Positions 5,241-45,392 of a DNA stretch of 64,000 nucleotides are shown in pieces. The notes beneath the pieces were generated by a model. The model had not been told where the DNA came from, did not search any database, and saw only the letters and a list, made by a program, of their open reading frames with translations. Positions within the stretch are counted from its first letter, which is position 1, and each line of letters starts with the position of its first letter. The DNA comes from Salinimicrobium catena (GTDB taxonomy: Bacteria > Bacteroidota > Bacteroidia > Flavobacteriales > Flavobacteriaceae): the NCBI RefSeq assembly GCF_900102915.1, contig NZ_FNGG01000001.1, positions 248,001 through 312,000 of the forward strand, given 5' to 3'. Position numbers and translations under genes: made by a program.

Positions 5241-5298
5241 ATTTGGTCGAACTAATTTTAAGAATACGACAGTTCTCAAGATTTGAAAATCTTCTAGA

Positions 5299-5335
5299 AG
5301 AAAACACTCTGCATAAAGAGTTGTTTTCTATTTTA
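5299..5335 (+). terminator. Probable terminator hairpin
   Basis: AGAAAACACTCT (5299-5310) pairs with AGAGTTGTTTTCT (5317-5329) with one bulge, followed by a T-rich tail. It lies 58 bases after the channel gene and before a convergent gene. Confidence 0.5.
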
Positions 5336-5357
5336 ATCTAAGATGAACTTAGTAACC

Positions 5358-5696
5358 TTATTTTCCTTCATCTCGTAAGGCCTGTATATAATCCACGATC
5401 TTGTCCACTTCTTTATCTGAAATCTTTTCTTCACTGAAAGCCGGCATTTCCCCTAACCCATTCCTTATCTGGTAACGTATGGCAAAACCGGGAATGGAAG
5501 TGGTTACTATAGGAGCACCCAATCCTGCAGTGCCGTTGGGATGGCAGGAGTTGCAGTATTTGTGAAACAGCACCTTTCCTTCCTCTACTTCCTGGCTCAT
5601 TTCAGCCAGTGGTTGTTTGGTATAGGCTTCTTTTTTTGAGGAACATCCCCAACTTAGAAATATAACTATTACTATTAAAATCAGTCTTCCTCCCAT
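5358..5696 (-). CDS. Lipoprotein class I cytochrome c
   Basis: The 112-residue product has a lipoprotein signal peptide with lipobox LSWGC (Cys18), so it should be anchored in a membrane facing the periplasm. One c-type haem site CNSCH is at 48-52, and Met84 in GEMPAF is the expected sixth ligand. The size matches small monohaem cytochromes. It starts 5 bp after the stop of the upstream PQQ-type dehydrogenase gene on the same strand, so it is almost certainly that enzyme's electron acceptor, carrying electrons to a terminal oxidase. The fold is clear; the partner assignment is inferred from gene position. Confidence 0.9.
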   Translation of the reverse strand: MGGRLILIVIVIFLSWGCSSKKEAYTKQPLAEMSQEVEEGKVLFHKYCNSCHPNGTAGLGAPIVTTSIPGFAIRYQIRNGLGEMPAFSEEKISDKEVDKIVDYIQALRDEGK

Positions 5697-5701
5697 GATC
5701 T

Positions 5702-7150
5702 TTACTCTTTAGATATTTTCCAAATCACTCCTGTACCTTTTCTTGGTTTTGCTCCCTCCTCTTTAGAAACGTTTAATATCCCAAAGTCTACAATATATAA
5801 AGCATCACCTTCTCTATTGAATTGTACCGACACGGGTCTTTCTAATCCTCCGGTTCTAAGAAAAGTGGCCGGGCCATTTCCTTTTCCTTTGTTGACGGCA
5901 AAGTTTTCGACCACTCCGTTACCAGGATTTACTCGCACCACCTTATATCCTACTGGTCTCATTACCTTTCCAACATTGGGTGCCATGTCACCAAATTGTG
6001 CAATAAAGACTTCGCCTTCAAAGCCAAATTTCCCGTTGCGGGCAATGTCCATTCCGTTAGAAGATGAATGCACCCCCAATTCCGCAATTGGATGAGGCGG
6101 TGAATACGGGTTTTCCTCCAACAGCAGTTTCGGAGCCCCCTTATCGGGCACCTTCATATGAGAAATTTCATGTCCGGCATTATAATCTGGCCAACCGTGC
6201 CAGGCTCCTTCCTTGATCTTCCATAGAACATCGCCTGTTCCCCAAACGGGCCTGCTTCCTCTTACATCATAACTGTTCTCGGTAACAAATAGTTCCCCCG
6301 TACCAGAAAATGCGATTCCATAAGGATTCCGCAACCCCCACGCTACCAGTTCAGGTTCCCCTCCCTCTAAAGGAATTTTCATGATCGCTCCATTACAGGG
6401 AACTGAACCTGCTATTACCTGCCCCGGCCGGGTGGATTGGCCAAAAGGCACATAAGCTCCGGTAGAGACGGAGTCTTTTGGTGCATCTGTCAAAGGGTTT
6501 TCACTGGTATAGTTGATACCTTTTAAAACGATATCCTTACATGGAATATCATGAAATTGGGGTTTGCGGGAAAGCCATCCAAAAGCTGCATTATCGGGTC
6601 CTACAACTGCCGAATTGGTTGCTGTTCCCTGCCCAAAGTAAATTTCACCATCTTTGATCACGGGTCCGTTCGTATGATGATCTCCCAAACTGGGTAGATT
6701 TTCCACCAGGGTATCAACATCTCCGCTACTGTCGATCCTCAGGATCTTTCCCCCTTCCATTTGGCCACCCTCAGCAACGTAGAAATAGCCATTGTTATAG
6801 GTTATTCCCGTCCAGGGACCATTTTTTGCTCCTTCTAAAACTAATTCGCTGCTTCCGTCTTCAGAAATTTTTAATAGCCTGGGCGGAAGAAAGATCTCTC
6901 CATATGCATATCCCGATTCGATCGCAAAAAGTTGCCCCTCATCGTTTTCTGTTACTGCTGTGGGAAACGTGAGTCCACGGGCAACTACTTCTACATTGTA
7001 TCCATCAGGAACCAATATATCTGCCGGATCAATCTGCCTTGGACCGGGATCATAATTGAGTTGTCCTCCTCCAGTAGGATTGTCTAAATTAGCACAACCC
7101 TGGAGTAACACGAATAAAGAAAGTGTTAGATACCAGAAATAGCCTCTCAT
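5702..7150 (-). CDS. Lipoprotein PQQ-dependent sugar dehydrogenase-like protein
   Basis: This 482-residue protein has a lipobox LLQGC (Cys19), followed by a Gly/Pro linker and a beta-propeller of the glucose/sorbosone dehydrogenase superfamily. Markers are TFPTAV near 61-66, the putative active-site GDHHTNGP near 156-163 (compare DNHNAG in the paralogue at 398-1711), WGLRNPYGIAF in the middle, and a late propeller repeat GDALYIVDFG. Proteins of this type oxidise sugars or related alcohols in the periplasm. The cytochrome c gene starts 5 bp after the stop, giving a two-gene electron-transfer unit. It is clearly diverged from the soluble paralogue, and the substrate is unknown. Confidence 0.83.
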   Translation of the reverse strand: MRGYFWYLTLSLFVLLQGCANLDNPTGGGQLNYDPGPRQIDPADILVPDGYNVEVVARGLTFPTAVTENDEGQLFAIESGYAYGEIFLPPRLLKISEDGSSELVLEGAKNGPWTGITYNNGYFYVAEGGQMEGGKILRIDSSGDVDTLVENLPSLGDHHTNGPVIKDGEIYFGQGTATNSAVVGPDNAAFGWLSRKPQFHDIPCKDIVLKGINYTSENPLTDAPKDSVSTGAYVPFGQSTRPGQVIAGSVPCNGAIMKIPLEGGEPELVAWGLRNPYGIAFSGTGELFVTENSYDVRGSRPVWGTGDVLWKIKEGAWHGWPDYNAGHEISHMKVPDKGAPKLLLEENPYSPPHPIAELGVHSSSNGMDIARNGKFGFEGEVFIAQFGDMAPNVGKVMRPVGYKVVRVNPGNGVVENFAVNKGKGNGPATFLRTGGLERPVSVQFNREGDALYIVDFGILNVSKEEGAKPRKGTGVIWKISKE

Positions 7151-7283
7151 TAGAATATTTTTTAGTGGTTAGCAAAAAACGGGAGGCAAGACAAAAGGTT
7201 CTTTTTTAATTTACAACATCTGAATCAATTAATCAGCATGTAGAGCAATTAAATACAATGCTAAAATATTATTTATCAAACCA

Positions 7284-7625
7284 TTAACCTGTAACATGAT
7301 AAAGAATCCAACCCAGGCCGGTAAGACCAATTGCTCCATGAACAACGGCAACCCAAACAGGTATATTTTTATGCCGAATATCTTTTGAAAAGAGGTAGAT
7401 ACCACCAATCGCGGCCGTGAAAAAAATGGCGAAACTGTCCCAGTGTTTGTGATGCTCACTTGTGGTAAGGGCATAGATCAAAAGAATAAGTATTCCCAAG
7501 GCCGCCAAAGTGCCGTGAACGATCGCCACGCCTTTTGGCGGATTCTTTTTTTGTAAAACGAATTTTATCATGTACAGCCCCAGGATCACTGCAAGGCTTA
7601 TCAAAATTATTGCGGTAAGTACCAT
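7284..7625 (-). CDS. Small four-helix membrane protein of unknown function
   Basis: The 113-residue product is almost entirely hydrophobic, with four predicted membrane segments at about 2-22, 34-52, 65-82 and 91-111. A His-rich loop (SEHHKHWD) follows the second segment and a HG motif recurs (VHGTLAALG, VHGAIGLTG), suggesting an internal duplication of a two-helix hairpin. Such paired His residues can bind haem or metal, but no family was recognised. Its ATG overlaps the stop of the upstream FAD-Rieske gene by one base (TAATG), so the two are translationally coupled, and a membrane partner or electron acceptor for that oxidoreductase is a reasonable guess. A reading frame in another phase at 7229-7474 is taken as a shadow. 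Confidence 0.65.
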   Translation of the reverse strand: MVLTAIILISLAVILGLYMIKFVLQKKNPPKGVAIVHGTLAALGILILLIYALTTSEHHKHWDSFAIFFTAAIGGIYLFSKDIRHKNIPVWVAVVHGAIGLTGLGWILYHVTG

Positions 7626-9136
7626 TAGGAATCTTTTCTGGATTTCACATCTCGTTTATCAAGGGGTGAAAAAGCAGGGCCTTCAATGACATCTCCTGTA
7701 GCCTCAAACCGACTGCCGTGGCAGGGACAATCCCAGGATTTCTCGGCATCGTTCCAGTCTACTATACAGTCCATGTGCGTACAAACGGCCGAATGGCAAT
7801 GCACCTGGCCCGTCTCGTCTTTATAAACTGCCCATTTTTCGTCGTCCACCTCAACCACTTTTCCTTCTCCTATTCCTACTTCGTAAAATCTTTCAGCTTC
7901 GGCTTTGCCCGGCAGGTCCTTCAGGTATTGTTTGGCCACATTGATGTTCTCCTTGATGTAATTCTTTGCCGACTTTATCGGCGTGAACCTTTTGGCTTTG
8001 TACAACTCTGCCCACTCATTTTCCCTTCCGGAAAGCAGATCTTTGAAGATCATCGCCGAAAGCACTCCGTAGGTAAGCCCATCTGTAGAAAAACCAGTGG
8101 CGAAGTAGATACCGTCATCAGAACTTTCGCCAATGTACGGCAGCCCGTCTGCGGGTTTGTAATGCTGCGCGCTCCATTTGTATTCAATTTCGGCCACATC
8201 AAATAATTTGCGGGCATGTTGCTCGAGTTTCTCAAAGAACCTCTCGTAATTGTCCTCCTGCCCTACCTTGTGATGCCCGCCAAGAACCAGCACATAGTTC
8301 CCGGTGTGGTTCTTAAAAGTTCTCATGGAAGTGTGGAAGGTAGCTTCGGTATCCCAATAGATCCCGTCTGGGTAGTCGCCCGAATTCAGTTTGGCGGCGA
8401 TGGCATATTCGCGGTGAGGATAAATGGCCGTTTGTACCGGATAGATCCCTTTAGGAGAATGAGTGGCCAGGATCACCTTTTTGGCGGTCACTGTTCCGTG
8501 TTGGGTAGAAAGCACATGATCTTCCCCTTTTTCGATATGGTGTACGTTGGTGTGTTCGTAGATGTGGCAGTTTTCAGAATCGATCTTTTCTGCCAGGCCT
8601 CTCACAAAAGCTGCCGGATTGAACTGAGCCTGCCCTTCTACTTTAATGGCAGAACTCACCTGCACCGGGATAGGCAGTTCCTGAAGCGTATCTGCCTTTA
8701 TTCCGTAGTCTTTTGCAGTGATGATCTCCTTTTCAATGGTTTCATCTTTTTTATTCGTCTCGCTGAAGAGGTACCAGGGAACTCTTTTAAAATCGCATTT
8801 TATCTCATGTTCCTTTACAAGGTTTTCGATCAGGTCTACCGCGGCCGCTCTGGATTCGGCTACGGCACGAGCCGTCTTCTCATCCCATTTTGACTGAATG
8901 TGATGCAGGCGCTTATCGACCATTTTGTAAAGGTTCCCGGTAGAGTCTCCCGTGGTACCGCCCGCCAGTTCATGGCTTTCCAGAACGGCTACTTTTTTTC
9001 CCTCTTTAGCGAGGAAATAGGCACTGGTGATTCCGGTAATACCACCTCCCACGATGGCTACATCTACTGTGATGTTATTTTTTAGTGCCGGATAATTCGT
9101 TTTTTGGGCTTTGGCTTTCCAGAGAGATCGTGTCAT
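7625..9136 (-). CDS. FAD-dependent oxidoreductase with C-terminal Rieske [2Fe-2S] domain
   Basis: This 503-residue protein has no signal peptide. An N-terminal DAO-type FAD fold starts at [20 protein letters not shown] (dinucleotide motif GGGITG at 30-35) and runs to about residue 380, with the typical late motif [17 protein letters not shown] Rieske domain closes the protein, with cluster ligands CTHMDC (452-457) and CPCHGSRF (470-477) fully conserved. DAO-Rieske fusions occur across bacteria; the amine or sugar they oxidise is not established. The iron-sulphur domain should pass electrons from FAD onward, and the coupled membrane protein at 7284-7625 could receive them. The start at 9136 is the first Met before the fold. 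Domain calls are secure, the substrate unknown. Confidence 0.9.
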
Positions 9137-9202
9137 AATCAGGTGGTTTTACTTAAAATTAGCCAATGCAGGCAATACCTACCAAACCTGCGTAGTTAGG
9201 AT

Positions 9203-9236
9203 TTTGTTAATCTGTAACAAAGCTGTACTAGCTTCG
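9203..9236 (+). promoter_or_regulatory. Possible Bacteroidota promoter for the CarboxypepD gene
   Basis: TTTG at 9203-9206 and TAGCTTCG at 9229-9236 resemble the -33 TTTG and -7 TAnnTTTG boxes with a 22-bp spacer and one mismatch. Transcription would begin about 14 bases before the ATG at 9257. Confidence 0.35.
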
Positions 9237-9256
9237 TCTACTAAGAAACACGCGAC

Positions 9257-10758
9257 ATGAGAACCATCATTTTCCTTAGTTTTTTACTTTTTCAATTTTC
9301 AACGCTGCAAGCGCAGCAAGTGAAGGCTCAAGTGCTGGAATGGGGCAGCAAAAAGCCCGTTCCCTACGCCAACGTGATCTTCGGCGAGCACAAAGGTGTG
9401 GTGACCAACGAAGAAGGTTTTTTCAGCTTTACTTCGGAAGAATTACCGGCCACCCTGGAGATCTCTTCCCTGGGCTATGAAGCAGTGGAACTGAAACCGG
9501 AAGAGATCAACAACAGCATCGTGTACCTGAAGCCGGCAAGCATAGAACTAAAAGAAGTTTTCCTTAGCAATAAAGAACTGAGTCCGCGGGAGATCGTGGA
9601 AATGGCCAAAGAAAAAGTTGCCGATAATTATGATTTTGACCTGGGCCAGAAAAGAGTGTTTTACAGGGAATCTGATTTTAGCCATATCAGGAAGTTTGAT
9701 ATGAAGGTGGAAGAAAGCACCATTCCTGGTATAGATCAGAACCTGATGGATCGTATTGAGGCAGAAATGCCCAAGGTTACCGATTCTTATAAAGAAGTTT
9801 TAGCCGATCTCTACGGAAACTATGACAGCCAGAAAGTGAGGATCGTGAAAGCGGCAAACCTTTATAATCCGCAGAATACACAGTCCCTGGACCAACTTAC
9901 AGAACACCTGGAAACCCTTTTCAGGCAAAACCTGAAAGAGAGATCCTTCCTCAAGATCAGGTCGGGGCTGCTCGGGGTCAAGGTAGATGAGGACGAATTA
10001 AAAGAGGGCTTTGAAGATTCAGATACCGATAAAAAAGAAAAAACTCCGGAAGAAATTGCGGAGAAAGAGGCCAAGATAAAGAAAAACCTTCAGGAAGGCA
10101 CCGGTAAGGAGATCCAGTCTCTGCTGGCCAACATGTTCTGGAAAGAAGACATTGCATTTAACCTTTTTGAGAAGATCAGAAAATATGAATTTGACCTGCA
10201 GGGTATTCTGCACCTGGGGCAGAACACGGTCTATGTGATCAATTTTGAACCCAAACGCCGCGCAGATTTTAAAGGAAAGATCTTTATTGACGCCCATGAT
10301 TATGGCGTGCACCGCATAGAATATGAAAATGTGAGGCCGCTGAGCAAATTCAGATTGTTCGGCATTAGTGCCATTGATGACATTTACCGCGGCAAAATGT
10401 TCTTCATGAAAGATGAAAATGGAAAATACAGCCTCAGTTACCTGGAGCGCGAACTGGGGGAAACCGTCGGCATAGATCGTCCGTTGACCATTATCGAGAA
10501 GAACAGGCACGTTCCCGGCCGCAATAAGCAGAATGAGCTTGACCTGGAACTCGACATGCGCTTTGGGCAGGTGGAAAAGTGCAGCTGGTGGTCTATGAGA
10601 ACAGGCCGCTTGCCAGTGAAGAATATGAAGCTGTAAAAGGGCAGGAAACCTTTGAGTATCAGAAATTCAAATCTTACAACCCAGATTTCTGGGCAGGGTA
10701 CAACATCATAGAACCCAACGCGGCCATCAAAGAATTCACGGCAATGGAGGCGGAGTAA
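9257..10758 (+). pseudogene. CarboxypepD_reg-like surface/secreted protein gene, frameshifted near its 3' end
   Basis: The gene encodes a signal peptide (1-20, ending LQAQ), then a carboxypeptidase-regulatory-like beta domain (about 21-100: PVPYANVIFGEHKG, EGFFSF, LEISSLGYE), then a region typical of Bacteroidota surface proteins of unknown role. Frame 1 stops at 10636 after 459 residues with an unlikely tail. From about 10571 the -1 frame continues the protein well (VQLVVYENRPLASEEYEA, FEYQKFKSYNPDFWAGYNIIEPNAAIKEF) and ends at the TAA at 10756-10758. One base is missing within GTGGAAAAG at 10571-10579; GTGGGAAAAG would give a continuous 500-residue protein. It is either a recent pseudogene or a sequencing error in a short G/A run. 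The lost end is only about 60 residues. Confidence 0.75.
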
Positions 10759-36223: not shown

Positions 36224-39200
36224 CTACTCCACCTCCACCTTCGCCTTGACATCCAGAGGTTTCAATACCTGCAAAGCGCGATCTACTGAAGTCACTTTTT
36301 CGAAGGTTAATAACAACCTCAGTCCGGCACGAGTTTTCTTTTCTTTCATGGTACAGGCATGCGGATGTGTTTGCACGTACTGCAATACCTTCGTAAAGGC
36401 CTTGCTCTGGTAGAAACCTGAATTCTGATCGGCGATGAAGTAACCTATCAGCTTGCCCTGTTTCATTACGATCTTCTCCAGGCCAATGGCCGAAGCGATC
36501 CATTTGATGCGGACGCTGTTCAAGAGGTCCTGTGCAGGATCGGGCAATGCTCCGAAACGGTCTACGAGTTCCGCCTCGAACTTCTCCAGCTCTTCCTCGT
36601 TCTTCACATTGTTGAGCTGAGTGTAGAGATTTAGGCGCTCAGAAATGTTGTTGATGTAATCATCAGGGAACAACAGCTCAAAGTCACTGTCGATCTGAGT
36701 ATCTTTGACGTATTCTTTATCTTCGGAAACCTGGTCGGCATACAATTCCTTGAACTCATTTTCCTTGAGTTCTTCGATGGCTTCATTTAAGATCTTTTGG
36801 TAAGTATCAAATCCTATCTCATTTATGAATCCGGATTGTTCCCCTCCTAAAAGGTCTCCGGCACCCCTAATTTCAAGATCCTTCATCGCGATATTGAACC
36901 CGCTGCCCAGTTCACTGAACTGCTCCAGGGCGGTGATTCGTTTGCGGGCATCATCGGTCATCGCAGAGTATGGCGGAGTGATGAAATAGCAGAAAGCTTT
37001 TTTGTTGCTTCGGCCAACCCGTCCGCGCATCTGGTGCAGGTCTGAAAGTCCGAAGTTATTGGCGTTGTTGATGAAAATTGTGTTGGCATTAGATACGTCG
37101 AGTCCGCTTTCCACGATGGTGGTGGACACCAGTACATCAAATTCCCCGTTCATAAACTTCAGCATAAGCTGCTCCAGTTTCTTCCCTTCCATCTGACCGT
37201 GACCGATCCCGATCTTCGCATCGGGCACCAGCCGCTGTATCATGCCCGCAACTTCCTTAATATTTTCAACCCGATTGTGGATGAAGAATACCTGGCCACC
37301 TCGTTGTATCTCGTATGAAACAGCATCGCGAATGGTCTCTTCAGAAAAACGGATCACATGGGATTCAATAGGATAACGGTTTGGCGGTGGAGTGGTAATA
37401 GTAGAAAGATCTCTCGCAGCCATCAAACTGAACTGCAGCGTACGCGGAATAGGTGTCGCCGTCAGCGTTAAGGTATCCACATTTTCTTTGATGGTCTTCA
37501 GTTTATCTTTTACAGCCACCCCGAATTTCTGCTCCTCATCAACAATAAGCAATCCAAGGTCTTTGAACTTCACGGTCTTGTTCACCAGCTGATGGGTTCC
37601 TATGATAATATCCACTTTTCCGTTTGCCAACTCCTCCAAAGTGGTTTTTCTTTCCTTGGCAGTTCTAAAGCGGTTCAGGTAATCAACCGTAACCGGAAAA
37701 TCCTTCAGGCGTTCGGTAAAAGTCTTGTAATGCTGAAATGCCAGAATGGTTGTCGGCACCAGCACTGCTACCTGTTTTCCGTTATCAACGGCTTTGAAAG
37801 CGGCACGGATCGCTACTTCAGTTTTTCCGAAGCCAACATCCCCGCACACTAGCCGATCCATAGGGCGTTCATTTTCCATATCGGCCTTGACATCAGCCGT
37901 GGCTGTACTTTGATCGGGAGTATCCTCGTAAATAAAGGATGCTTCCAGCTCGTGCTGCAGGTAGGAATCGGGACCAAATCCGAAGCCTTTTTGTAGGCGG
38001 CGCTTGGCGTATAGCTCGATTAGGTTATAAGCGATGTGCTTGACCCGCGCCTTGGTCTTCTGCTTCAGGTTCTTCCAGGCGTTGCTGCCCAGCTTGTAGA
38101 TCTTGGGCGGCTTCCCGTCCTTGCCGTTGTACTTGGAGATCTTGTGTAAGGAGTGAATGCTCAGGTAAAGAATATCCCGCTCGCCGTAGATGAGCTTGAT
38201 AGCCTCCTGTTTTTTGCCCTCTACATCAATTTTTTGAAGGCCGCCGAACTTCCCGATCCCGTGATCGATATGGGTCACGTAGTCTCCTACTTCCAGGTTA
38301 GTAAGTTCCTTCAGGGTAATCGCCTGTTTCTTGGCGTAACCGTTCTTCAGGTGGAATTTATGATAGCGCTCAAAGATCTGGTGATCTGTATAACACACCA
38401 TTTTCGAGGCTTCATCGATAAAGCCCTGGTACATGGAAAGCACCACGGTCTGGTATTTCACGTCTGTGTCAACATCGTCGAAAATGTCATGAAAACGCTT
38501 GGCCTGCTGCTCGCTGACGCAGAAAATATAATTGGTATAACCTTCCTCAGAACGCTGATGCAGGTCCTGGATCAACAGGTCAAAATGCTTGTTGAACGAA
38601 GGTTGGGGTTTGGTATTGAACTGAATCGTCTCAACCTGAGACCCTGAAACAAGTTCAGGGTGACGACCCGACATTTCCACCAGGGTGTACTCCTGCAACT
38701 GTTCTTGCAAAAGAGCGGAATTGCAGAACAATTCTTCAGGCGTACCGTGTTTAATATCTTCGGAAAGGTCCTTAAAAGCTTCAAGAGCTTTGTTGAAAAG
38801 TTTATCGATCTGTGCCGAAAGCAGCTCCAGGTCTTTGGTGAAGACCACGGTCTTATCTGAAATGTACTTCAGAAAACTCTCCCTAACTTCTTCCGTGCGC
38901 TTGTGCTCTACATTTGGAATGATAGTGATCTTCTTCACTTTTTCAGTAGAAAGCTGTGTCTCCACATCAAAAGTTCTTATGCTTTCCACCTCATCGCCGA
39001 AGAATTCGATACGGTAAGGCTTATCATTGCTGAAAGAGAAAACATCCAGGATCCCTCCACGTACCGAGAATTCTCCGGGTTCGGTCACAAAATCCACTCT
39101 TTTGAACTTGTACTCGAACATCACCTCGTTCACAAAGTCGATGGAAAGTTCGTCATCCACCTTGATCTTCAAAGTACTCTTTTCAAGCTCCTTTCGGGTG

Positions 39201-39598
39201 ACCACTTTTTCAAAAAGTGCATCGGGATAAGTGACTATGAGCGCAGGTTTCTTGCGGGAATTGATGCGGTTAAGGACTTCAGCCCGTAAAAGCACGTTGG
39301 CATTGTCGGTTTCTTCTATCTGGTATGGCCTGCGGTAACTTCCGGGGTAAAAAAGCACGTGCTTCTCTCCCACCAGCTGCTCCAGGTCATTCAGGTAATA
39401 GGCCGCTTCTTCCTTGTCATTAAAGATCAGCAAAAATGGCTTTTCTGAATCCTCAAAGGCATTGGCGATCACAAAAGAAAGTGAGGAGCCAACGAGGCCT
39501 TTTAAATGAACATTCTGTTGAGGCTGGGCAATAGCTTTCCCCAGTTCCAGCTGCTGGGCCGACTGTGCAAAGCTTTGGGCGATAGAAGATCTACTCAA
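36224..39598 (-). CDS. mfd: Transcription-repair coupling factor
   Basis: This 1124-residue protein frees stalled RNA polymerase and recruits UvrA. In order it has the UvrB-like N-terminal domains, the RNA-polymerase-interacting CarD-like domain (LEVGDYVTHIDHGIGKFGGLQKI), Walker A (CGDVGFGKTEVAIRAAF, near residue 590), the DEEQ-type Walker B (VDEEQKFGV), ATPIPRTL, and the TRCF C-terminal domain. Near residue 311 the peptide RHPELVSGSQ is read from an inserted palindromic repeat, between EYTLVEMSG and VETIQFNTKPQPSFNK; other Mfd proteins have a short, variable link there, so activity need not suffer. A TATCTTTG box lies 16 bases before the ATG. It is next to the ligase-associated repair cluster. 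Confidence 0.97.
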   Translation of the reverse strand: MSRSSIAQSFAQSAQQLELGKAIAQPQQNVHLKGLVGSSLSFVIANAFEDSEKPFLLIFNDKEEAAYYLNDLEQLVGEKHVLFYPGSYRRPYQIEETDNANVLLRAEVLNRINSRKKPALIVTYPDALFEKVVTRKELEKSTLKIKVDDELSIDFVNEVMFEYKFKRVDFVTEPGEFSVRGGILDVFSFSNDKPYRIEFFGDEVESIRTFDVETQLSTEKVKKITIIPNVEHKRTEEVRESFLKYISDKTVVFTKDLELLSAQIDKLFNKALEAFKDLSEDIKHGTPEELFCNSALLQEQLQEYTLVEMSGRHPELVSGSQVETIQFNTKPQPSFNKHFDLLIQDLHQRSEEGYTNYIFCVSEQQAKRFHDIFDDVDTDVKYQTVVLSMYQGFIDEASKMVCYTDHQIFERYHKFHLKNGYAKKQAITLKELTNLEVGDYVTHIDHGIGKFGGLQKIDVEGKKQEAIKLIYGERDILYLSIHSLHKISKYNGKDGKPPKIYKLGSNAWKNLKQKTKARVKHIAYNLIELYAKRRLQKGFGFGPDSYLQHELEASFIYEDTPDQSTATADVKADMENERPMDRLVCGDVGFGKTEVAIRAAFKAVDNGKQVAVLVPTTILAFQHYKTFTERLKDFPVTVDYLNRFRTAKERKTTLEELANGKVDIIIGTHQLVNKTVKFKDLGLLIVDEEQKFGVAVKDKLKTIKENVDTLTLTATPIPRTLQFSLMAARDLSTITTPPPNRYPIESHVIRFSEETIRDAVSYEIQRGGQVFFIHNRVENIKEVAGMIQRLVPDAKIGIGHGQMEGKKLEQLMLKFMNGEFDVLVSTTIVESGLDVSNANTIFINNANNFGLSDLHQMRGRVGRSNKKAFCYFITPPYSAMTDDARKRITALEQFSELGSGFNIAMKDLEIRGAGDLLGGEQSGFINEIGFDTYQKILNEAIEELKENEFKELYADQVSEDKEYVKDTQIDSDFELLFPDDYINNISERLNLYTQLNNVKNEEELEKFEAELVDRFGALPDPAQDLLNSVRIKWIASAIGLEKIVMKQGKLIGYFIADQNSGFYQSKAFTKVLQYVQTHPHACTMKEKKTRAGLRLLLTFEKVTSVDRALQVLKPLDVKAKVEVE
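38636..38666. repeat. Palindromic repeat inserted in frame in mfd
   Basis: ACCCTGAA (38641-38648) and TTCAGGGT (38654-38661) flank ACAAG. The minus-strand core CACCCTGAACTTGTTTCAGG is a repeat I recognise from Bacteroidota spacers. Here it codes for HPELVSG (residues 313-319 of Mfd). Confidence 0.7.
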
Positions 39599-39889: not shown

Positions 39890-40537
39890 TCACTTCAACA
39901 AAATAACCTCCTCATTCGCCAGGACATACACCTCATTTCTCTCTTTAGGATGCAGAATATGTTTCCCGGTGAACTCTCCAAAAGCGGGAAGTATCATTTG
40001 ATTCTCATTTTTGAAAAAACAGGGTAGTTTCAGAGATTGACGGGCAAGTCCGTTGATACGGACTCCCGGATGGATGTGTCCTGAAAAGTTGAAAAACCCC
40101 GACCTTTCCTCGGGGTGATGGGTTAAAAGAAAGTTTTTTAGGATGATCTCCGGAAAGAGCTTCACTCCCAAAGCCTCATATTTTAAGGGTGAAATAATGT
40201 CGTGGTTTCCTTCCACAAGGATAACTTCCGAAGTAATATTATCCATCCAGGCTTCAAAGAATAACCATTCCTTGTTGAGGGAACTGTGAAAAAGGTCACC
40301 CAAAAAGACAATTTTTGAAGGCTGAAAGAATTCAACGACCTCGGTGAGCTTCAGAAAATTTCCCTGCACCGCACTCTGAGGCACCGCGCTCCCGAATTTC
40401 CTGAAGTGGGAAACCTTCCCCAAATGCACATCGCTGATGAGCAGCATATCTTCTTCCTCCCAGAAAAGGGCGCCCGAATAGTGCAGAATAAAATTCTGCT
40501 CAAAAATGGTAATAGATTTAGTCATTTTGGAGGTCAT
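39890..40537 (-). CDS. pdeM: Ligase-associated DNA damage response endonuclease PdeM
   Basis: With the ATG at 40537, which overlaps the helicase stop as ATGA, the 215-residue product is a calcineurin-like phosphoesterase. Metal-site motifs are LLISDVHLGK, LGDLFHS, EGNHD, THHPE and SGHIHPG, in the order and spacing of the PdeM family. PdeM is found with the ligase-associated helicase, exonuclease and ligase and is thought to process DNA ends. The frame is open to 40654, but the added residues are helicase shadow. A later Met (40525) is possible, yet the overlap favours 40537. Confidence 0.9.
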   Translation of the reverse strand: MTSKMTKSITIFEQNFILHYSGALFWEEEDMLLISDVHLGKVSHFRKFGSAVPQSAVQGNFLKLTEVVEFFQPSKIVFLGDLFHSSLNKEWLFFEAWMDNITSEVILVEGNHDIISPLKYEALGVKLFPEIILKNFLLTHHPEERSGFFNFSGHIHPGVRINGLARQSLKLPCFFKNENQMILPAFGEFTGKHILHPKERNEVYVLANEEVILLK

Positions 40538-42996
40538 AGATTTTCCCACTGTGCCATCATTCTTTTTACGCGATCCTCCAGTTTTTCCGAAGTCAGTTTT
40601 TCCCGCAGCCTGTCGGTAATGATCGGGAAGGCAAAAGGCGTTGGCTTCTCGCAATCTTTCCAGACGATGGTCTGCTGCTCGATACGTTCCATTGCCATGA
40701 GCAACCGGCCTTCCTCCAGCTGGTGTTCAAAGGTTTCCCGAAATGCCTGCTGAAAAAGCAGATTATCGGGTTCATAATCCCTGAAAACGCTGAAAAGCAG
40801 CTGAGAATTTGACTGAAGGTGTTTTGTTTTGATCATTTTATTCGGAAAGCCTGTAAAAACCATGCCTGAAATGACGGCGATGTCACGAAATTTTCTCCGG
40901 GCCATTTCGGTAGCATTTAAACTCTTCTGCAGATCGTCCATGAGATACTCTGAAGTGATCAGGTTGTTGTCAAAGACCTGCTGCATATCTATCGGCTGAT
41001 CTGAAAGCAGCTCAAATCCGTAATCATTGAAGGCAAGCGAAAAAGTGATGGGTGACAACAGACTGATTCGATAAGCCAGCAAACTTGCCATAGCCTCGTG
41101 TACGAACCGGCCTTCAAAAGGATAAAAAATTGCGTGGTAACCCTCACGGGTTTTAAAGGTCTCGATCAGGAATTCATCTTTTCCGGGGATAATGGATTCC
41201 TTTTTCTGGCGTTTGAAAATATGGGAAAGAGCTTTCAGTTCAACCGACTTATGGGACTTGCCTGCCGCCACGAACATCTCCTCCCGCAGCAGCTCGCTCA
41301 TCTGGGCCGAAAAGGTCATTCTCCCTCCTGCCCAGCTTGGGAACCTCGAACTTTTTTGTTTTGACTTCTTGACGATCACCTGCATGTTCTTCACCTTGTA
41401 AAGTTCGAGGTTCTTTCCGGCGAAGGTAAACACATCTCCCGGATTCAATTTTGAAATGAACCATTCCTCGATCGTGCCAATGTAGCCGCCTCCCAAATAT
41501 TTTACTGAAAGCACGGCGTCACCAACAATGGTTCCTATCTGCAGCCGGTGACGCATGGCGATTGCCCGGTTATTCACCTTGAATTTCCCGTTTTCTTCGA
41601 TCTCCACTTTTTTGTACTCGTCATAGGCCTGCAGTGTCTGACTTCCTTTTGTAATGAAATTCAGGATCCACTCCCATTGATCGTCGGAAAGAGCCTGGTA
41701 GCAGAAGGTGGATTTTACTTCAGGATAAATATCCTTCGGAAAGAACCCGTCAGAAACCGCAAGCGTGGTAAGATATTGAACCAAAACGTCAAAGCTCTGC
41801 AGGTAAGGAACACGATCTTCAACAGCCGTATTTTTCACGGCTTTCTGAAGGGCCGAAGCTTCAATGAGTTCCATGGCATGTGTTGGCAGAAAATAGATCA
41901 CGCTCTCTTCTCCCGGGCGGTGACCGCTTCGGCCCGCCCTTTGCAAAAACCGGGCGACCCCTTTTGGCCCGCCTATTTGAATGATGGTTTCTACCGGCGC
42001 GAAGTCAACTCCCAGGTCCAGGCTGGAAGTCGCCACCACCGCTTTCAGCTGCTCGTCCCGAATGGCCTGTTCTACCCAAAGCCTTGTTTCCTTATTGATG
42101 CTACCGTGGTGCATGGCCAGTTCCCCGGCAAATTCAGGGTATTTCTGAAGAATACGCTGAAACCAGATCTCGCACTGCGAGCGGGTGTTGGTAAAAAGCA
42201 AGGTGGTCTTGCTATTCCTGATGATGGGGATGACCTCATCCAACAGGTGCATTCCCAAATGTCCCCGCCACGGAAAAGTTTCCATTTTCTCCGGAATAAT
42301 AGAACTCACCTTTATCTTCTTATTGATCTTCGCCTTTATCAATACCGAATTTTCAAAAGCCTCCGACCCCGGCCCTAATAAAACTTCCCTTGCCTGCTGT
42401 AGATTCCCGATAGTAGCCGAAATGCCCCAGATCTTCATTTTTGGCGAGATGGTCTTCAGCCTGGAAAGCGCCAATTCCACCTGCACTCCGCGTTTGGTAC
42501 CCAGTAATTCATGCCATTCGTCAATAACGATCGCGTTCAGATCTTTAAATGTCTTGTCGTAGCCTTTTGAGGAAAGTAGCAGTTGCAAACTTTCCGGCGT
42601 GGTGATCAGCAGATCGGGCATTTTTTTCTTCTGGGCCGTTCTGATCTTTTGTGGAGTATCGCCCGTTCTTATTCCCACTGTAAGGCCACTACCAATATCC
42701 TGCGCAAACCGGTTCGCCGCCTGTTCTATTTCTACGGAAAGTGCCCGCAGCGGAGTGATCCAGATGGCTTTCAGTCCGGGTTTATGTTTGGTCTTATAAT
42801 CAGGATTTTGCCGAATATAATCCAGCACGATCGGGATCCAGAGGGCGTAGGTCTTTCCACTTCCGGTAGGCGCGTTTAGCAGTCCGTGTTTGCTTTGTAA
42901 AAAGGCGTTCCAGGTCTGTTTCTGGAATGGGAAGGGCTTCCAGTTCTGGGAACTGAACCAGTTTTCTGCTATTTTTAAAAGTTCGTTTCTATTCAT
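40534..42996 (-). CDS. Ligase-associated DNA damage response DEXH-box helicase
   Basis: The 820-residue product (start at 42996, MNRNELLKIAENWF) is an Lhr-core superfamily 2 helicase. Visible motifs are Walker A NAPTGSGKTYAL near 40-51, DEWHELL (DEXH box), SATIGN, LFTNTRSQCEIWF and QRAGRSGHRPG (motif VI), then the Lhr-type winged helix and C-terminal domain. The product works with the adjacent ligase, exonuclease and PdeM in a DNA-repair set that resembles a bacterial NHEJ or alkylation-repair pathway without Ku. The frame extends upstream to 43053 only by reading the spacer repeat, so the ATG at 42996 is used. The repeat at 43006 sits 9 bases before this start. Confidence 0.93.
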   Translation of the reverse strand: MNRNELLKIAENWFSSQNWKPFPFQKQTWNAFLQSKHGLLNAPTGSGKTYALWIPIVLDYIRQNPDYKTKHKPGLKAIWITPLRALSVEIEQAANRFAQDIGSGLTVGIRTGDTPQKIRTAQKKKMPDLLITTPESLQLLLSSKGYDKTFKDLNAIVIDEWHELLGTKRGVQVELALSRLKTISPKMKIWGISATIGNLQQAREVLLGPGSEAFENSVLIKAKINKKIKVSSIIPEKMETFPWRGHLGMHLLDEVIPIIRNSKTTLLFTNTRSQCEIWFQRILQKYPEFAGELAMHHGSINKETRLWVEQAIRDEQLKAVVATSSLDLGVDFAPVETIIQIGGPKGVARFLQRAGRSGHRPGEESVIYFLPTHAMELIEASALQKAVKNTAVEDRVPYLQSFDVLVQYLTTLAVSDGFFPKDIYPEVKSTFCYQALSDDQWEWILNFITKGSQTLQAYDEYKKVEIEENGKFKVNNRAIAMRHRLQIGTIVGDAVLSVKYLGGGYIGTIEEWFISKLNPGDVFTFAGKNLELYKVKNMQVIVKKSKQKSSRFPSWAGGRMTFSAQMSELLREEMFVAAGKSHKSVELKALSHIFKRQKKESIIPGKDEFLIETFKTREGYHAIFYPFEGRFVHEAMASLLAYRISLLSPITFSLAFNDYGFELLSDQPIDMQQVFDNNLITSEYLMDDLQKSLNATEMARRKFRDIAVISGMVFTGFPNKMIKTKHLQSNSQLLFSVFRDYEPDNLLFQQAFRETFEHQLEEGRLLMAMERIEQQTIVWKDCEKPTPFAFPIITDRLREKLTSEKLEDRVKRMMAQWENL

Positions 42997-43005
42997 AATT
43001 CTGCT

Positions 43006-43061
43006 CGGACCCTTCCGTCTCCGCCTCCCGGCGGAGCCACCTTCCCTTAGCAAGGGAAGGA
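43006..43061. repeat. 56-bp direct repeat, copy A
   Basis: This is identical over 56 bases to 43577-43632. It holds two hairpins: CTCCGCC/GGCGGAG with a 4-base loop and CCTTCCCTT/AAGGGAAGG with loop AGC. Weak similarity continues for another 45 bases or so. The two copies bracket the DUF559 gene. Confidence 0.93.
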
Positions 43062-43133
43062 ACTTTTGATTGTGCTACTATTTTTGATATTTCTTCATTT
43101 ATAAATATTCCAAACTCAAGTTTTCATAAAGCT

Positions 43134-43175
43134 CCCCTCCTTTCTAAGGAGGGGTGTCCGAAGGACGGGGTGGTT
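43134..43175. repeat. GC-rich hairpin module at the DUF559 3' end
   Basis: CCCCTCCTT (43134-43142) pairs perfectly with AAGGAGGGG (43146-43154), followed by GACGGGGTGG. The DUF559 stop codon (43144-43146) lies in the loop, and its last nine codons are read from the module. Confidence 0.8.
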
Positions 43176-43530
43176 TGAAATTATTTTTTATTTCCTCCAA
43201 CACCCAATCCAGATTCTCAAACACGCTTCTATTCTCAAATCTTACAACCCTAAATCCAAGTTCTTCCAGCTTCTTTGTTCTTGCCGCATCTCTTTCTTCG
43301 GCTGTGGAATTCATATGATACTGCCCGTCAAGCTCGATGATCAGTTTTTCTTCGGGGCAGTAGAAATCTACAATGAAATTCAGAATGCTGTGCTGCCTCC
43401 TGAATTTTCTACCTTCCAGTTTTTTCTGCTGTAGGTATTTCCACAAAAAAGCCTCTGCCGAAGTGCCATGACTGCGGAGTTTCTTCCAGTACGGCTCGAG
43501 AGATTTCTTGTTGTGAATGTGTTTTTTCAT
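43144..43530 (-). CDS. DUF559 endonuclease-like protein in a repeat-bracketed cassette
   Basis: With the ATG at 43530 the 128-residue product is a DUF559 protein of the Vsr/PD-(D/E)xK fold: FLWKYLQQKKLEGRKFRRQHSILNFIVDFYCPEEKLIIELDGQYH, the metal-site strand Asp...Glu-Leu-Asp included, then the closing GFRVVRFENRSVFENLDWVLEEIKNNF. The activity of DUF559 is not established. The gene lies between ligase and helicase genes that otherwise form one conserved block, and the 56-bp repeat occurs on both sides (copies 571 bp apart). Its last residues PPRPSDTPP are encoded by repeat. It looks like a passenger or mobile cassette. Confidence 0.88.
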   Translation of the reverse strand: MKKHIHNKKSLEPYWKKLRSHGTSAEAFLWKYLQQKKLEGRKFRRQHSILNFIVDFYCPEEKLIIELDGQYHMNSTAEERDAARTKKLEELGFRVVRFENRSVFENLDWVLEEIKNNFKPPRPSDTPP

Positions 43531-43576
43531 TTTTTCAACAGCAGTATTTGTTCTGCAAGATTTTTTGTTTTCATAA

Positions 43577-43632
43577 CGGACCCTTCCGTCTCCGCCTCCC
43601 GGCGGAGCCACCTTCCCTTAGCAAGGGAAGGA
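43577..43632. repeat. 56-bp direct repeat, copy B
   Basis: Identical to 43006-43061. It lies 47 bases upstream of the DUF559 ATG. A third related GC-rich sequence starts at 45393 next to the ligase ATG (CGGACCCC), so the same motif may have been the landing or origin sequence. Confidence 0.93.
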
Positions 43633-43729
43633 CCTTTTATTTGTGCTACTATTTTAACTACTTCTTCAATTCTAAATTTTCCTAACCCAGATTTTTCACA
43701 GGAAACAGCAAAGCTGTTTCCCTAAAGAT

Positions 43730-43785
43730 CCCCTCCTTTTTAAGGAGGGGTGGATTTGCCAAGGGCAAAGACGGGGTGGTCCGTC
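43730..43785. repeat. GC-rich hairpin module at the ligase 3' end
   Basis: CCCCTCCTT (43730-43738) pairs perfectly with AAGGAGGGG (43742-43750), followed by GACGGGGTGG as in the module at 43134. It lies just after the ligase stop. Confidence 0.8.
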
Positions 43786-43796
43786 GCACCTTAATT

Positions 43797-45392
43797 CTAC
43801 TTAGGGATCAACGCCTTCAAATCCTCCAACGTATTGGCTTCCTCTATCTTCTTATCCTGCCGCCACCTCAGAATTCTGGGGAAACGAGTGGCCACTCCGC
43901 TTTTATGTCTGTTGGACTCCGCGATGCCTTCAAAAGCGATCTCGAAGACCAGTTCGGGTTTTACACTGCGAACAGGGCCGAAACGTTCCAGGGTGTTTTT
44001 CTTGATGAAAGCATCCACCTGCCTGAATTCAGCATCGGTCAGACCTGAATACGCTTTTGCAAAAGTGACCAGTTCCTCTTTCTCCTCATCCCATAACCCG
44101 AAAGTGTAATCTGTAAACAAATTCGATCTTCTTCCGTGGCCGCGCATGGCGTAGGTGAGAACTGCATCGATTGTTAATGGCTCGACCTTCCATTTCCACC
44201 AGTCCCCTTTTTTTCTTCCCACCAGGTAGGGCGAATCCCAACGCTTGAGCATCAGTCCTTCGCTGCGCACTTCCCTTGCACGCTCCCTCTCGGCAACTGC
44301 TTCTTCCCAGCGTTCAAAGGAAATGGTATGCGAAAGGTGCAGGGGAAGCTCTTCATGTCCCACTTTGGAATGCAATTCTTCCAGGATCTCCCTTCTCTCT
44401 GAAAATGGTTTTTTTCGCAGGTCTTCCCCCTGCCATTCCAGCAGATCATAGGCCTTCAGGATCACCGGGGTTTTCTTCAGAAGGGCTTTGGAAACGTTCT
44501 TTCGGCCAATGCGGGTTTGCAGGTCATTGAAGGTTCCTATCTCCCCTTCCGGAAAAGGCAGGATCTCCCCATCGAGAACGGTTCCGTCAGGCAATACTTT
44601 TGTAAAATCAGAAAATTCAGGGTATTTATCGGTTACCAGTTCTTCTCCCCGGCTCCATACGAAAACTTCTCCATTGCGCACCACCACCTGCGCCCGAATG
44701 CCGTCCCATTTATGTTCTGCGCTCCACTCGGCAGGATCACCCAGATCTCCCGGTTCCCCTTCAATGGCATAGGCCAGGTAGAACGGGTAAGGCTTGGAAA
44801 GGTAATCTTCCTCATTCTCCTCTAAAATGAGCTTTTCAAAGGAAATTTTCTGCGGATCCCAGTCGCCCATCAGCTTATAAGCCAGGACATCTTCATCAAT
44901 ATCGGTGGCTTTTGAGAGGGCCCTGGTCATTAGTTTCTGGCTCACCCCTATCCGGAAACTACCCGTGATCAATTTCGTGAAAACAAAGCGTTCGTAGTAA
45001 TTCAGGGCCAGCCAGTTCTCGTGCAGGTATTCTTTCTTTTCAGATTCTGTCGCAGCTTTAAGGTCGATGATCTCATCGAGGTACTGAGAAAGGCTTTTTT
45101 CGCTGTTTTCTTCGGAAGGCGGGATCACCAGGGCAATGGTTTCTGCCAGGTCACCAACAATGTGGTAGGATTCTTCGAAAAGCCACAACGGGATCTGCGC
45201 CAGTTCTGCGGCGAAGGTGCGCAACAGGGTTGTATTCACAGGTCTGGGCGGGCGTCGGTGAGAAAGGATGGCGATAGCCCAGACCTTGTCCTTCCCGGGT
45301 ACCCGCTGAAAATATCGGGTCAAAGCCGCTACCTTTACCGTTGTTTTGTTGGTGCTGTCAAGTTCTTTTATGAGTGCTGCAAATTCTTCCAT
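43797..45392 (-). CDS. ATP-dependent DNA ligase (ligase-associated cluster)
   Basis: The 531-residue product is an ATP-dependent ligase. Lys228 in EHKWDGIRAQ is the adenylation site, followed by SRGEELVTDKYPE (motif Ia/III region), DGEILPF, EGLMLKRWDSPYLVGRK (motif IV) and WWKWK (motif V), with an N-terminal DNA-binding domain of about 200 residues and an OB fold at the end. It is the central enzyme of the ligase-associated repair cluster, with the MBL exonuclease upstream and the helicase and PdeM downstream. The GC-rich module CGGACCCC begins right beside its ATG. All catalytic motifs are present. Confidence 0.95.
   Translation of the reverse strand: MEEFAALIKELDSTNKTTVKVAALTRYFQRVPGKDKVWAIAILSHRRPPRPVNTTLLRTFAAELAQIPLWLFEESYHIVGDLAETIALVIPPSEENSEKSLSQYLDEIIDLKAATESEKKEYLHENWLALNYYERFVFTKLITGSFRIGVSQKLMTRALSKATDIDEDVLAYKLMGDWDPQKISFEKLILEENEEDYLSKPYPFYLAYAIEGEPGDLGDPAEWSAEHKWDGIRAQVVVRNGEVFVWSRGEELVTDKYPEFSDFTKVLPDGTVLDGEILPFPEGEIGTFNDLQTRIGRKNVSKALLKKTPVILKAYDLLEWQGEDLRKKPFSERREILEELHSKVGHEELPLHLSHTISFERWEEAVAERERAREVRSEGLMLKRWDSPYLVGRKKGDWWKWKVEPLTIDAVLTYAMRGHGRRSNLFTDYTFGLWDEEKEELVTFAKAYSGLTDAEFRQVDAFIKKNTLERFGPVRSVKPELVFEIAFEGIAESNRHKSGVATRFPRILRWRQDKKIEEANTLEDLKALIPK

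What the first reader, a model, noticed from the sequence alone, without database searches (positions are those of the whole stretch)
43006..43632. DUF559 gene in a 571-bp unit between identical 56-bp repeats, inside a conserved operon
A 56-bp sequence with two hairpins occurs at 43006 and 43577 and brackets the DUF559 gene exactly, between ligase and helicase, which are normally adjacent. Removing one unit would restore the ancestral junction. The gene's last nine codons come from a further hairpin module. A nuclease-fold gene with repeats it could recognise resembles a minimal mobile or homing element, and this kind of element has not to my knowledge been described for DUF559.
Basis: partly seen in the sequence, partly recalled or inferred. 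Interest (0 to 1): 0.75.

Follow-up and report, generated by a model that had tools for sequence, protein, structure and literature searches.

The report
Nuclease gene with matching palindromic ends
A small DNA-cutting enzyme gene sits between palindromic repeats in this bacterium, and relatives in several bacterial groups show the same pairing, sometimes inserted in frame inside essential genes, so it looks like an undescribed kind of tiny mobile element.

Summary
In detail: identical 56-bp repeats at 43006 and 43577 bracket the genome's only DUF559 gene. They are parts of two longer composites (158/178 identical), each an inverted pair of two-hairpin REP-like modules. The ligase/helicase site is full in 9 of 10 comparable genomes of the genus; G006 has one composite and no gene; three other genera have an 11-12 bp junction. 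The pairing is general: a C/G-rich hairpin lies within about 280 bp of 49/60 DUF559 genes from several phyla, against 14/314 other ORFs (both sides 33/60 against 1/314). Repeat type mostly follows the DUF559 gene within a genome. One clade sits mostly in frame inside MetH, LeuS, RecG and others. In one genome two copies lie at unrelated places, homology ending at or near the repeats. Best reading: a minimal mobile element, a Vsr/EDxHD-fold nuclease gene with cognate REP ends, working like a REPtron with an unrelated enzyme. Unit mobility is well supported; that DUF559 cuts, and whether by homing or transposition, is inferred. Ten literature searches found no report linking DUF559 to REPs.

The parts
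43144..43530 (-). DUF559 gene (PD-(D/E)XK, Vsr/EDxHD-like nuclease, 128 aa from the ATG at 43530); its last nine codons lie in REP module M1
   Evidence: Pfam PF04480 E 1.5e-34; profile hits 3hrl 5e-32 and 3r3p 3e-6; model matches 3hrl, 3r3p, Vsr; pN/pS 0.16 over 21 congener pairs
43577..43637 (+). REP module M2 on the 5' side of the gene; CGTC-tagged head towards the gene, hairpin 2 and tail outward
   Evidence: hairpin 1 covaries across congeners
43128..43175 (-). REP module M1 on the 3' side of the gene, overlapping its last codons and stop; head towards the gene, tail AGCTTT outward
43128..43637 (-). inferred minimal element: inverted REP M2 - DUF559 - REP M1
   Evidence: inference from the two-copy comparison in genome G136, where homology ends at one REP tail and about 23 bases outside the other hairpin, in the same arrangement
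   Evidence: 56/56 identical to 43577-43632
43062..43127 (.). AT-rich spacer of the helicase-side composite
43724..43783 (-). outer M1 module next to the ligase stop codon
43638..43723 (.). AT-rich spacer of the ligase-side composite, with an extra small palindrome
40534..42996 (-). Lhr-type helicase (neighbouring gene, downstream)
   Evidence: WH_Lhr, DEAD, DEAD_assoc
43797..45392 (-). ATP-dependent DNA ligase (neighbouring gene, upstream)
   Evidence: DNA_ligase_A_N/M/C

Best explanation
The locus holds a minimal mobile element, or its descendant: a gene for a single-domain PD-(D/E)XK nuclease (DUF559, related to the EDxHD homing endonuclease I-Bth0305I and to Vsr) whose ends are two inverted, cognate REP-type palindromes. 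The unit has moved as REP-DUF559-REP; the REPs also survive alone or as inverted pairs after the gene is lost. Most likely (inferred) DUF559 recognises its own REP, as hairpin or mismatched single strand, and nicks or cleaves at the REP or at an unoccupied target; host repair or recombination then copies the REP-bounded unit in. Insertions persist where they do little harm: between neighbouring genes, as here, or in frame in loops of essential proteins. Shown here: the anatomy, the bare, solo and full states, gene-repeat pairing, a unit present at two unrelated places of one genome, in-frame insertions, purifying selection. Inferred: the direction of change between states, the cutting step, its substrate, and the copying route.
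For: Of 21 ligase loci, 9 of the genus (own included) are full, G006 has one composite and no gene, and 3 other genera have an 11-12 bp junction. MetH in the genus, 10 of 12 genomes with a match: 3 filled in frame, 3 bare, 3 with a solo in-frame REP and 1 degraded remnant as I read the alignment. Flank-to-flank similarity above the 99th percentile of same-locus controls: 22 of 39 Bacteroidota loci, p 3e-12, and 11 of 21 loci from other phyla, p 7e-9. C/G-rich hairpin within about 280 bp: 49/60 against 14/314; both sides 33/60 against 1/314. Own flanks against other DUF559 loci of the same genome: medians 28 vs 12, 25 vs 11.5, 23 vs 13. Within-genome pair L280/L281: 490 bp, 85.5% identical, unrelated surroundings, homology ending at one REP tail and close to the other REP; three more within-genome pairs with homology of about 395-634 bp, ends not inspected. 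Host domains found in 9 of 9 long fusions scanned with Pfam. Hairpin 1: 5 of 6 base pairs change on both sides, 0 of 500 shuffles as high. Eight Y1 transposase loci of the genus have no M1/M2 repeat within 1.5 kb.
Against: No cleavage or movement was observed. 17 of 39 and 10 of 21 loci fail the flank-to-flank test; E. coli ycjD fails it, with REPs only downstream. In one search, 5 of 28 loci score no higher with their own other flank than with another locus of the genome. REP B is also found in congeners without its DUF559 clade: G007 7 copies, G011 6, G010 4, G000 and G003 1 each, so repeats outlive the gene or another enzyme moves them. The left end of the G136 unit is not sharp. The DUF559 of Caulobacter, VsrA, is reported as a Vsr-like protein functionally linked to a DNA methyltransferase (PMC12907096, passages), which suits a host repair role. 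A Y1 transposase gene lies 3.8-3.9 kb from this locus in 4 congeners. In the in-frame loci I read (L051, L128, L129) the repeats point heads outward, unlike here, so the end architecture is not uniform.
Confidence: 0.68

Rival explanations
1. The REPs are moved by an HUH (Y1/RAYT) transposase, as in known REPtrons, and DUF559 is a passenger caught between REPs.
For: Y1_Tnp matches occur in 25 of 60 genomes (own included) and 4 times in the own genome, one of them weak; one lies 3.8-3.9 kb from this locus in G005, G007, G009 and G010. RAYTs are the proposed movers of REPs (PMC6006769, passages).
Against: None of the 8 Y1 loci of the genus that I scanned (of 20 fetched) carries M1/M2 repeats, and the 6 whose flanks I printed show other palindromes. 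Repeat type mostly follows the DUF559 gene within a genome. G003 and G004 have the full DUF559 unit at the ligase/helicase site but no Y1 match.
Confidence: 0.12
2. DUF559 is a resident host enzyme (Vsr-like repair or structure-processing nuclease) that acts on REPs; it sits next to them because of function, like a domesticated RAYT, and is no longer mobile.
For: Purifying selection (pN/pS 0.16); the 7 ligase/helicase copies in the tree form one clade; VsrA in Caulobacter is Vsr-like and DNA-damage-inducible (PMC12907096, passages); ycjD lies between sapF and fabI in an E. coli chromosome.
Against: Patchy presence (25 of 60 genomes own included, 170 of 296 of the phylum sample), up to 10 matches per genome, fragments included, within-genome copies at unrelated places, in-frame insertions in many proteins, and stop-interrupted copies at this very site in G002 and G005.
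Confidence: 0.12
3. Nothing but a tandem duplication or gene conversion in a repeat-rich intergenic region; the DUF559 gene is unrelated to the repeats.
For: The two composites of this genome are alike (158/178), and in G011 the two sides score 167 against each other.
Against: Repeats bracket DUF559 genes elsewhere far above same-locus controls, and the MetH site of the genus shows bare, solo and full states.
Confidence: 0.04
4. Homing proper: DUF559 cuts the unoccupied allele at a specific site and the element is copied by repair into the same site of other strains and species.
For: I-Bth0305I kinship. The MetH-site DUF559 of G008 groups with that of another genus and a MAG rather than with G010/G002. 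The same HsdR loop holds DUF559 of two distant clades. The RecG site is shared by 3 genera of one family.
Against: Five MetH-site copies, G008 included, still form one clade (97/85), so one old insertion with odd sorting is not excluded. Permissive loops could explain repeated use. REPs occur alone at other places. G136 and three other pairs show copies at non-homologous places within a genome, which homing does not predict.
Confidence: 0.3

Closest known systems
REPtron: RAYT/TnpA_REP with REP/BIME/REPIN repeats
   Same: One small nuclease gene flanked by its own type of palindromes, inverted pairs, several types per genome, solo repeats elsewhere, in-frame REPs in coding sequence
   Different: Enzyme is DUF559 (PD-(D/E)XK), not an HUH Y1 transposase; no GTAG foot; the gene-containing unit itself is found at two places of a genome, whereas REPtrons are said not to appear to transpose as a unit (PMC6006769, passage)
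EDxHD / Vsr-like homing endonucleases (I-Bth0305I)
   Same: Catalytic domain by sequence profile (E 3e-6) and fold; insertion in conserved genes
   Different: No intron or intein seen; no extended DNA-binding region in the 128-aa protein; palindromic ends; no splicing domain among Pfam hits at E up to 1e-10 in the 9 fusions scanned
CGTC-tagged REPs (Di Nocera 2013), including Rickettsia palindromic elements
   Same: Hairpin 1 has an unpaired CGTC in front and a CCA-like tail behind; in-frame copies in genes; published as lacking a dedicated transposase
   Different: Stem mostly 4-7 bp instead of 8-9, usually no A-T start, a second hairpin; the CGTCACCCTGAAC... repeat of this genus was not seen immediately beside DUF559 (9 copies seen)
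Caulobacter VsrA (DUF559) and E. coli YcjD
   Same: Same protein family; ycjD has a dispersed REP downstream
   Different: VsrA is described as a predicted mismatch-repair nuclease linked to a methyltransferase (PMC12907096, passages); ycjD has REPs on one side only

Membership tests
REPtron (RAYT + REP) | HUH Y1 tyrosine transposase gene | tested here: not met
   The protein matches PF04480 and, below its cut-off, another REase family, no Y1; Y1 genes lie elsewhere with other repeats
REPtron (RAYT + REP) | flanking, dispersed, cognate palindromes often in inverted pairs | tested here: met
REPtron (RAYT + REP) | GTAG foot | tested here: not met
   M1 and M2 modules carry CGTC, no GTAG at the stem foot
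CGTC REP families | CGTC tag at one end and CCA tail | tested here: met
   CGT invariant, following C nearly so, CACC after the stem invariant in 17 distinct M2 modules (of 20 found)
CGTC REP families | 8-9 bp stem, A-T pairs first, loop 4-5 | tested here: not met
   Stems mostly 4-7 bp, usually no A-T start; features from PMC3733652 passages
EDxHD / Vsr-like nucleases | catalytic domain homology and conserved E, D, H, D | tested here: met
   that these are the residues meant by the name EDxHD is recalled
Homing endonuclease | cleaves the unoccupied allele | not testable with these tools
   needs biochemistry
Homing endonuclease | occupied and empty alleles at one site, spread between lineages | tested here: inconclusive
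   Occupied and empty alleles: met at MetH and ligase/helicase. Spread between lineages rests on a tree of short sequences in which five MetH copies form one clade
Intein | splicing domain | tested here: not met
   Pfam scan of 9 long fusions shows host domains and DUF559 only, at E up to 1e-10

The most novel reading that the evidence does not exclude
DUF559 genes with cognate REP-type ends form a bacteria-wide class of minimal transposable elements moved by a Vsr/EDxHD-fold nuclease. They are independent of HUH transposases, able to invade protein-coding genes in frame without splicing, and the source of many 'orphan' REP families, including one beside ycjD in E. coli.
Probability: 0.5. Interest if true: 0.93.

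Novelty: new variant of a known kind. Interest (0 to 1): 0.84.

Why it matters
DUF559 is a common family of unknown function (170 of 296 Bacteroidota genomes sampled), and some REP families have no known mover; CGTC REPs are stated to lack a dedicated transposase (PMC3733652, abstract and passages). If the pairing is causal it gives the family a job, gives orphan REPs an enzyme, and explains in-frame nuclease inserts in MetH, LeuS, RecG and HsdR. It should be testable in E. coli, where ycjD has a neighbouring REP with 21 places in an MG-named chromosome. At about 0.5 kb it would also be a very small nuclease-bearing mobile unit.

Tried and rejected
Tested and dropped: (1) simple tandem duplication of a 571-bp unit: the minimal ends probably lie elsewhere. 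(2) Y1/RAYT as the mover: no shared repeats in the 8 loci scanned. (3) DUF559 as partner of the CGTCACCCTGAAC... repeat of the genus: 9 copies in the loci then held, none right beside DUF559. From the coordinates, six of them (L193) lie about 2-3 kb from a DUF559 gene of G007 and two (L107, L109) about 5.5-6 kb from one, so I neither claim nor exclude a link. (4) A target-site duplication at the LeuS insert of G008 (CAAAATTT on both sides): most bare LeuS copies are themselves repetitive there (GTTCAA repeats), so not claimed. (5) Phage origin: 5 phage records match, at most 37% identical, two of them over 93% of the query. (6) Plasmid copies of this locus: no DNA match. (7) Structured RNA: one Rfam match, far under its cut-off. 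(8) Defence system: only weak PADLOC hits.

Negative or limiting results: 17/39 and 10/21 loci without a flank match; of the 14 loci in frames over 400 aa, 10 had none. In one search one of 40 loci was dropped for a short flank, and it is left out too. In one search, 16 of 45 plasmid-collection records were fetched, picked for spread of taxa before their flanks were seen, plus 5 earlier loci. In one search, 23 of 28 loci score higher with their own other flank than with any other locus of the genome; the five that do not are L114, L115, L127, L051 and L030 (L114 and L115 are one clade); L038 there is only the piece behind a stop. In one search, 11 of 12 LeuS loci were compared; G009, whose match is split, was left out. 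In one search the pair L320/L327 overlaps and is one place counted twice; 30 of 40 listed matches had loci. The correlations between protein identity and flank score use non-independent pairs. In one search the M2 pattern found 20 modules in 9 genomes and missed that of G006. The count of E. coli places uses E up to 10 and includes partial matches.

Literature: 10 full-text searches of open-licence PMC papers. DUF559 occurs in 14 papers; 2 also hold 'palindromic' and, by title and start of abstract, neither concerns this. bioRxiv preprints are not held as such and most subscription journals are missing.

Full report
Observation. The two 56-bp stretches are identical and 571 bp apart, far beyond chance. 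They bracket a DUF559 gene between an Lhr-type helicase and an ATP-dependent DNA ligase. This is the only DUF559 match in a 3.26-Mb genome. The 56-mers are parts of larger composites (158/178 identical), each made of module M1, an AT-rich spacer and an inverted, related module M2. A module reads head (ACCACCCCGTC or CCCTTCCGTC), hairpin 1, CCA, hairpin 2, tail with CTTT. Hairpin 1 varies in sequence but keeps pairing: 5 of 6 pairs have changes on both sides, 95.7% of cells paired, covariation above all 500 shuffles (17 distinct M2 modules). Parts of the repeat match elsewhere in the genome, at two places as inverted pairs with 113 and 117 bp between the arms.

Bare, solo and full sites. Of 60 genomes, own included, 21 have the ligase. 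Of the 21 junctions, nine of the genus including this genome are full. G006 has exactly one composite and no DUF559. G021, G012 and G024, of other genera, have 11-12 bp between the genes. The remaining eight have other spacers (18 to 141 bp), another ORF or no adjacent helicase. DUF559 at this site is interrupted by a stop in G002 and G005. The gene evolves under purifying selection (pN/pS 0.16 against 0.11 for the ligase, 7 genomes, 21 pairs each), though synonymous sites are near saturation. Which state came first within the genus is not shown.

The pairing is general. Of 60 genomes, own included, 25 have DUF559, and 170 of 296 in a phylum sample. I compared the 350 bp upstream with the 350 bp downstream, against windows of the same geometry in the same locus. 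22 of 39 loci exceed the 99th percentile of controls; by my count from the listing these are 18 of 25 loci in short frames and 4 of 14 in frames over 400 aa. Loci from alpha-, beta- and gammaproteobacteria, cyanobacteria, Deinococcus and Patescibacteria gave 11 of 21. Looking only for C/G-rich hairpins within about 280 bp, 49 of 60 DUF559 genes have one and 33 have them on both sides; for other ORFs of the same loci it is 14 and 1 of 314.

Cognate types. In genomes with several DUF559 genes each tends to have its own repeat. Flank-to-flank scores within a locus have median 28 (n = 28) against 12 across loci of one genome (n = 54, best of four flank pairs); 23 of 28 loci score highest with their own other flank. 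Further sets gave 25 against 11.5 (20 loci) and 23 against 13 (30 loci, one place counted twice). In G042 five DUF559 loci score 17.5 to 158.5 with themselves and at most 14.5 with each other. REP type B occurs in 10 of the 12 genomes of the genus and in one of 48 other genomes, G040, whose DUF559 is sister to that clade. Type C occurs only in the genus, 7 of 12. Both are also found in congeners without the matching gene, so repeats outlive it or are moved otherwise.

In-frame insertions. One DUF559 clade (28 rows, support 100/93) lies mostly in frame inside host proteins. Pfam shows host domains on both sides of DUF559, or in HsdM beside it, in 9 of 9 proteins scanned: MetH, LeuS, RecG, a UvrD-type helicase, methylmalonyl-CoA mutase, HsdR, HsdM, a Type ISP enzyme and acetyl-CoA synthetase; the HsdR, HsdM and Type ISP cases belong to other clades. 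In the genus the MetH linker is filled in G002, G008 and G010 and bare in G000, G001 and G003; I read a solo in-frame REP in G006, G009 and G011 and a degraded remnant in G004; G005 and G007 gave no MetH match. The DUF559 in MetH of G008 groups with another genus and a MAG, not with G010 and G002, though these five together form one clade (97/85). The same HsdR loop is used by two distant clades.

Movement. In genome G136, L280 and L281 share 490 bp (85.5% identical; DUF559 92%) at unrelated places on two contigs. The right end of homology is the last base of the REP tail (GGGGACTTT). The left end is less sharp: the match begins in A/T-rich sequence about 23 bases outside the hairpin of an inverted REP. 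The arrangement, heads inward and tails outward, is the one seen immediately round the window gene, which suggests a minimal unit at about 43128-43637. Three more within-genome pairs (L304/L309, L314/L319, L321/L324) have homology of about 395-634 bp plus REP-sized matches; I did not inspect their ends. In the in-frame loci that I read for this (L051, L128, L129) the repeats point the other way.

Enzyme. The profile finds 3hrl (5e-32) and the homing endonuclease I-Bth0305I, 3r3p (3e-6). A model (mean pLDDT 79) matches 3hrl, 3r3p, AbaSI, PvuRts1I and Vsr. The Y1 transposase loci of the genus that I scanned have no M1/M2 repeat (8 of 20 fetched).

E. coli. ycjD lies between sapF and fabI; a REP starts about 155 bp downstream. 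A 58-bp query holding it has matches, at E up to 10 and partial ones included, at a median of 19 places per genome in 5,376 of 5,426 genomes, 21 in an MG-named strain. The two sides of ycjD do not match each other. From recall, this may be the repeat called Box C; I did not check that.

Conclusion. The association is, in my view, beyond doubt. Mobility of the unit is well supported by one good within-genome pair and by bare, solo and full sites. That DUF559 makes the cut, and whether the path is homing or transposition, is inference. In working it is closest to REPtrons, in enzyme to EDxHD homing endonucleases; it is not a REPtron member, since the Y1 enzyme is absent, and homing membership is undecided, since cleavage is untested. 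Papers: PMC3733652 was seen as abstract, outline and passages; PMC6006769, PMC12907096 and PMC3943268 as passages.

Noticed in passing
window 38639-38662 (-), inside the Mfd-like ORF 36224-39598: A CGTC-tagged palindrome (CGTCACCCTGAACTTGTTTCAGGGTCT, read as RHPELVSGSQ) sits in frame in what looks like the transcription-repair coupling factor gene.
   Followed up: partly
L270 (G003 LeuS), around 1466: The same CGTC palindrome lies in frame in LeuS of G003, in the loop where G008 carries DUF559.
   Followed up: partly
G005, G007, G009, G010 near the ligase/helicase locus: A Y1 transposase gene lies 3.8-3.9 kb from DUF559 in these four congeners; the own genome's Y1 matches are on other contigs.
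   Followed up: partly
G247:C1:3491633-3492540: Two DUF559 matches in tandem about 590 bp apart, a spacing close to the 571 bp of the window repeat.
   Followed up: no
L193 (G007:C13 about 210-212 kb): Six CGTCACCCTGAAC... palindromes in a row, among copies of REP type C and about 2-3 kb from a DUF559 gene.
   Followed up: no
L145, L149 (HsdR): Besides the DUF559 insert, HsdR carries a short REP-like peptide (SSPTGRGQGEG in L145) at another loop.
   Followed up: no
L261, Pseudanabaena plasmid, 4873-9738: DUF559 inside a very long ORF of a BREX locus, between brxC and pglZ.
   Followed up: no
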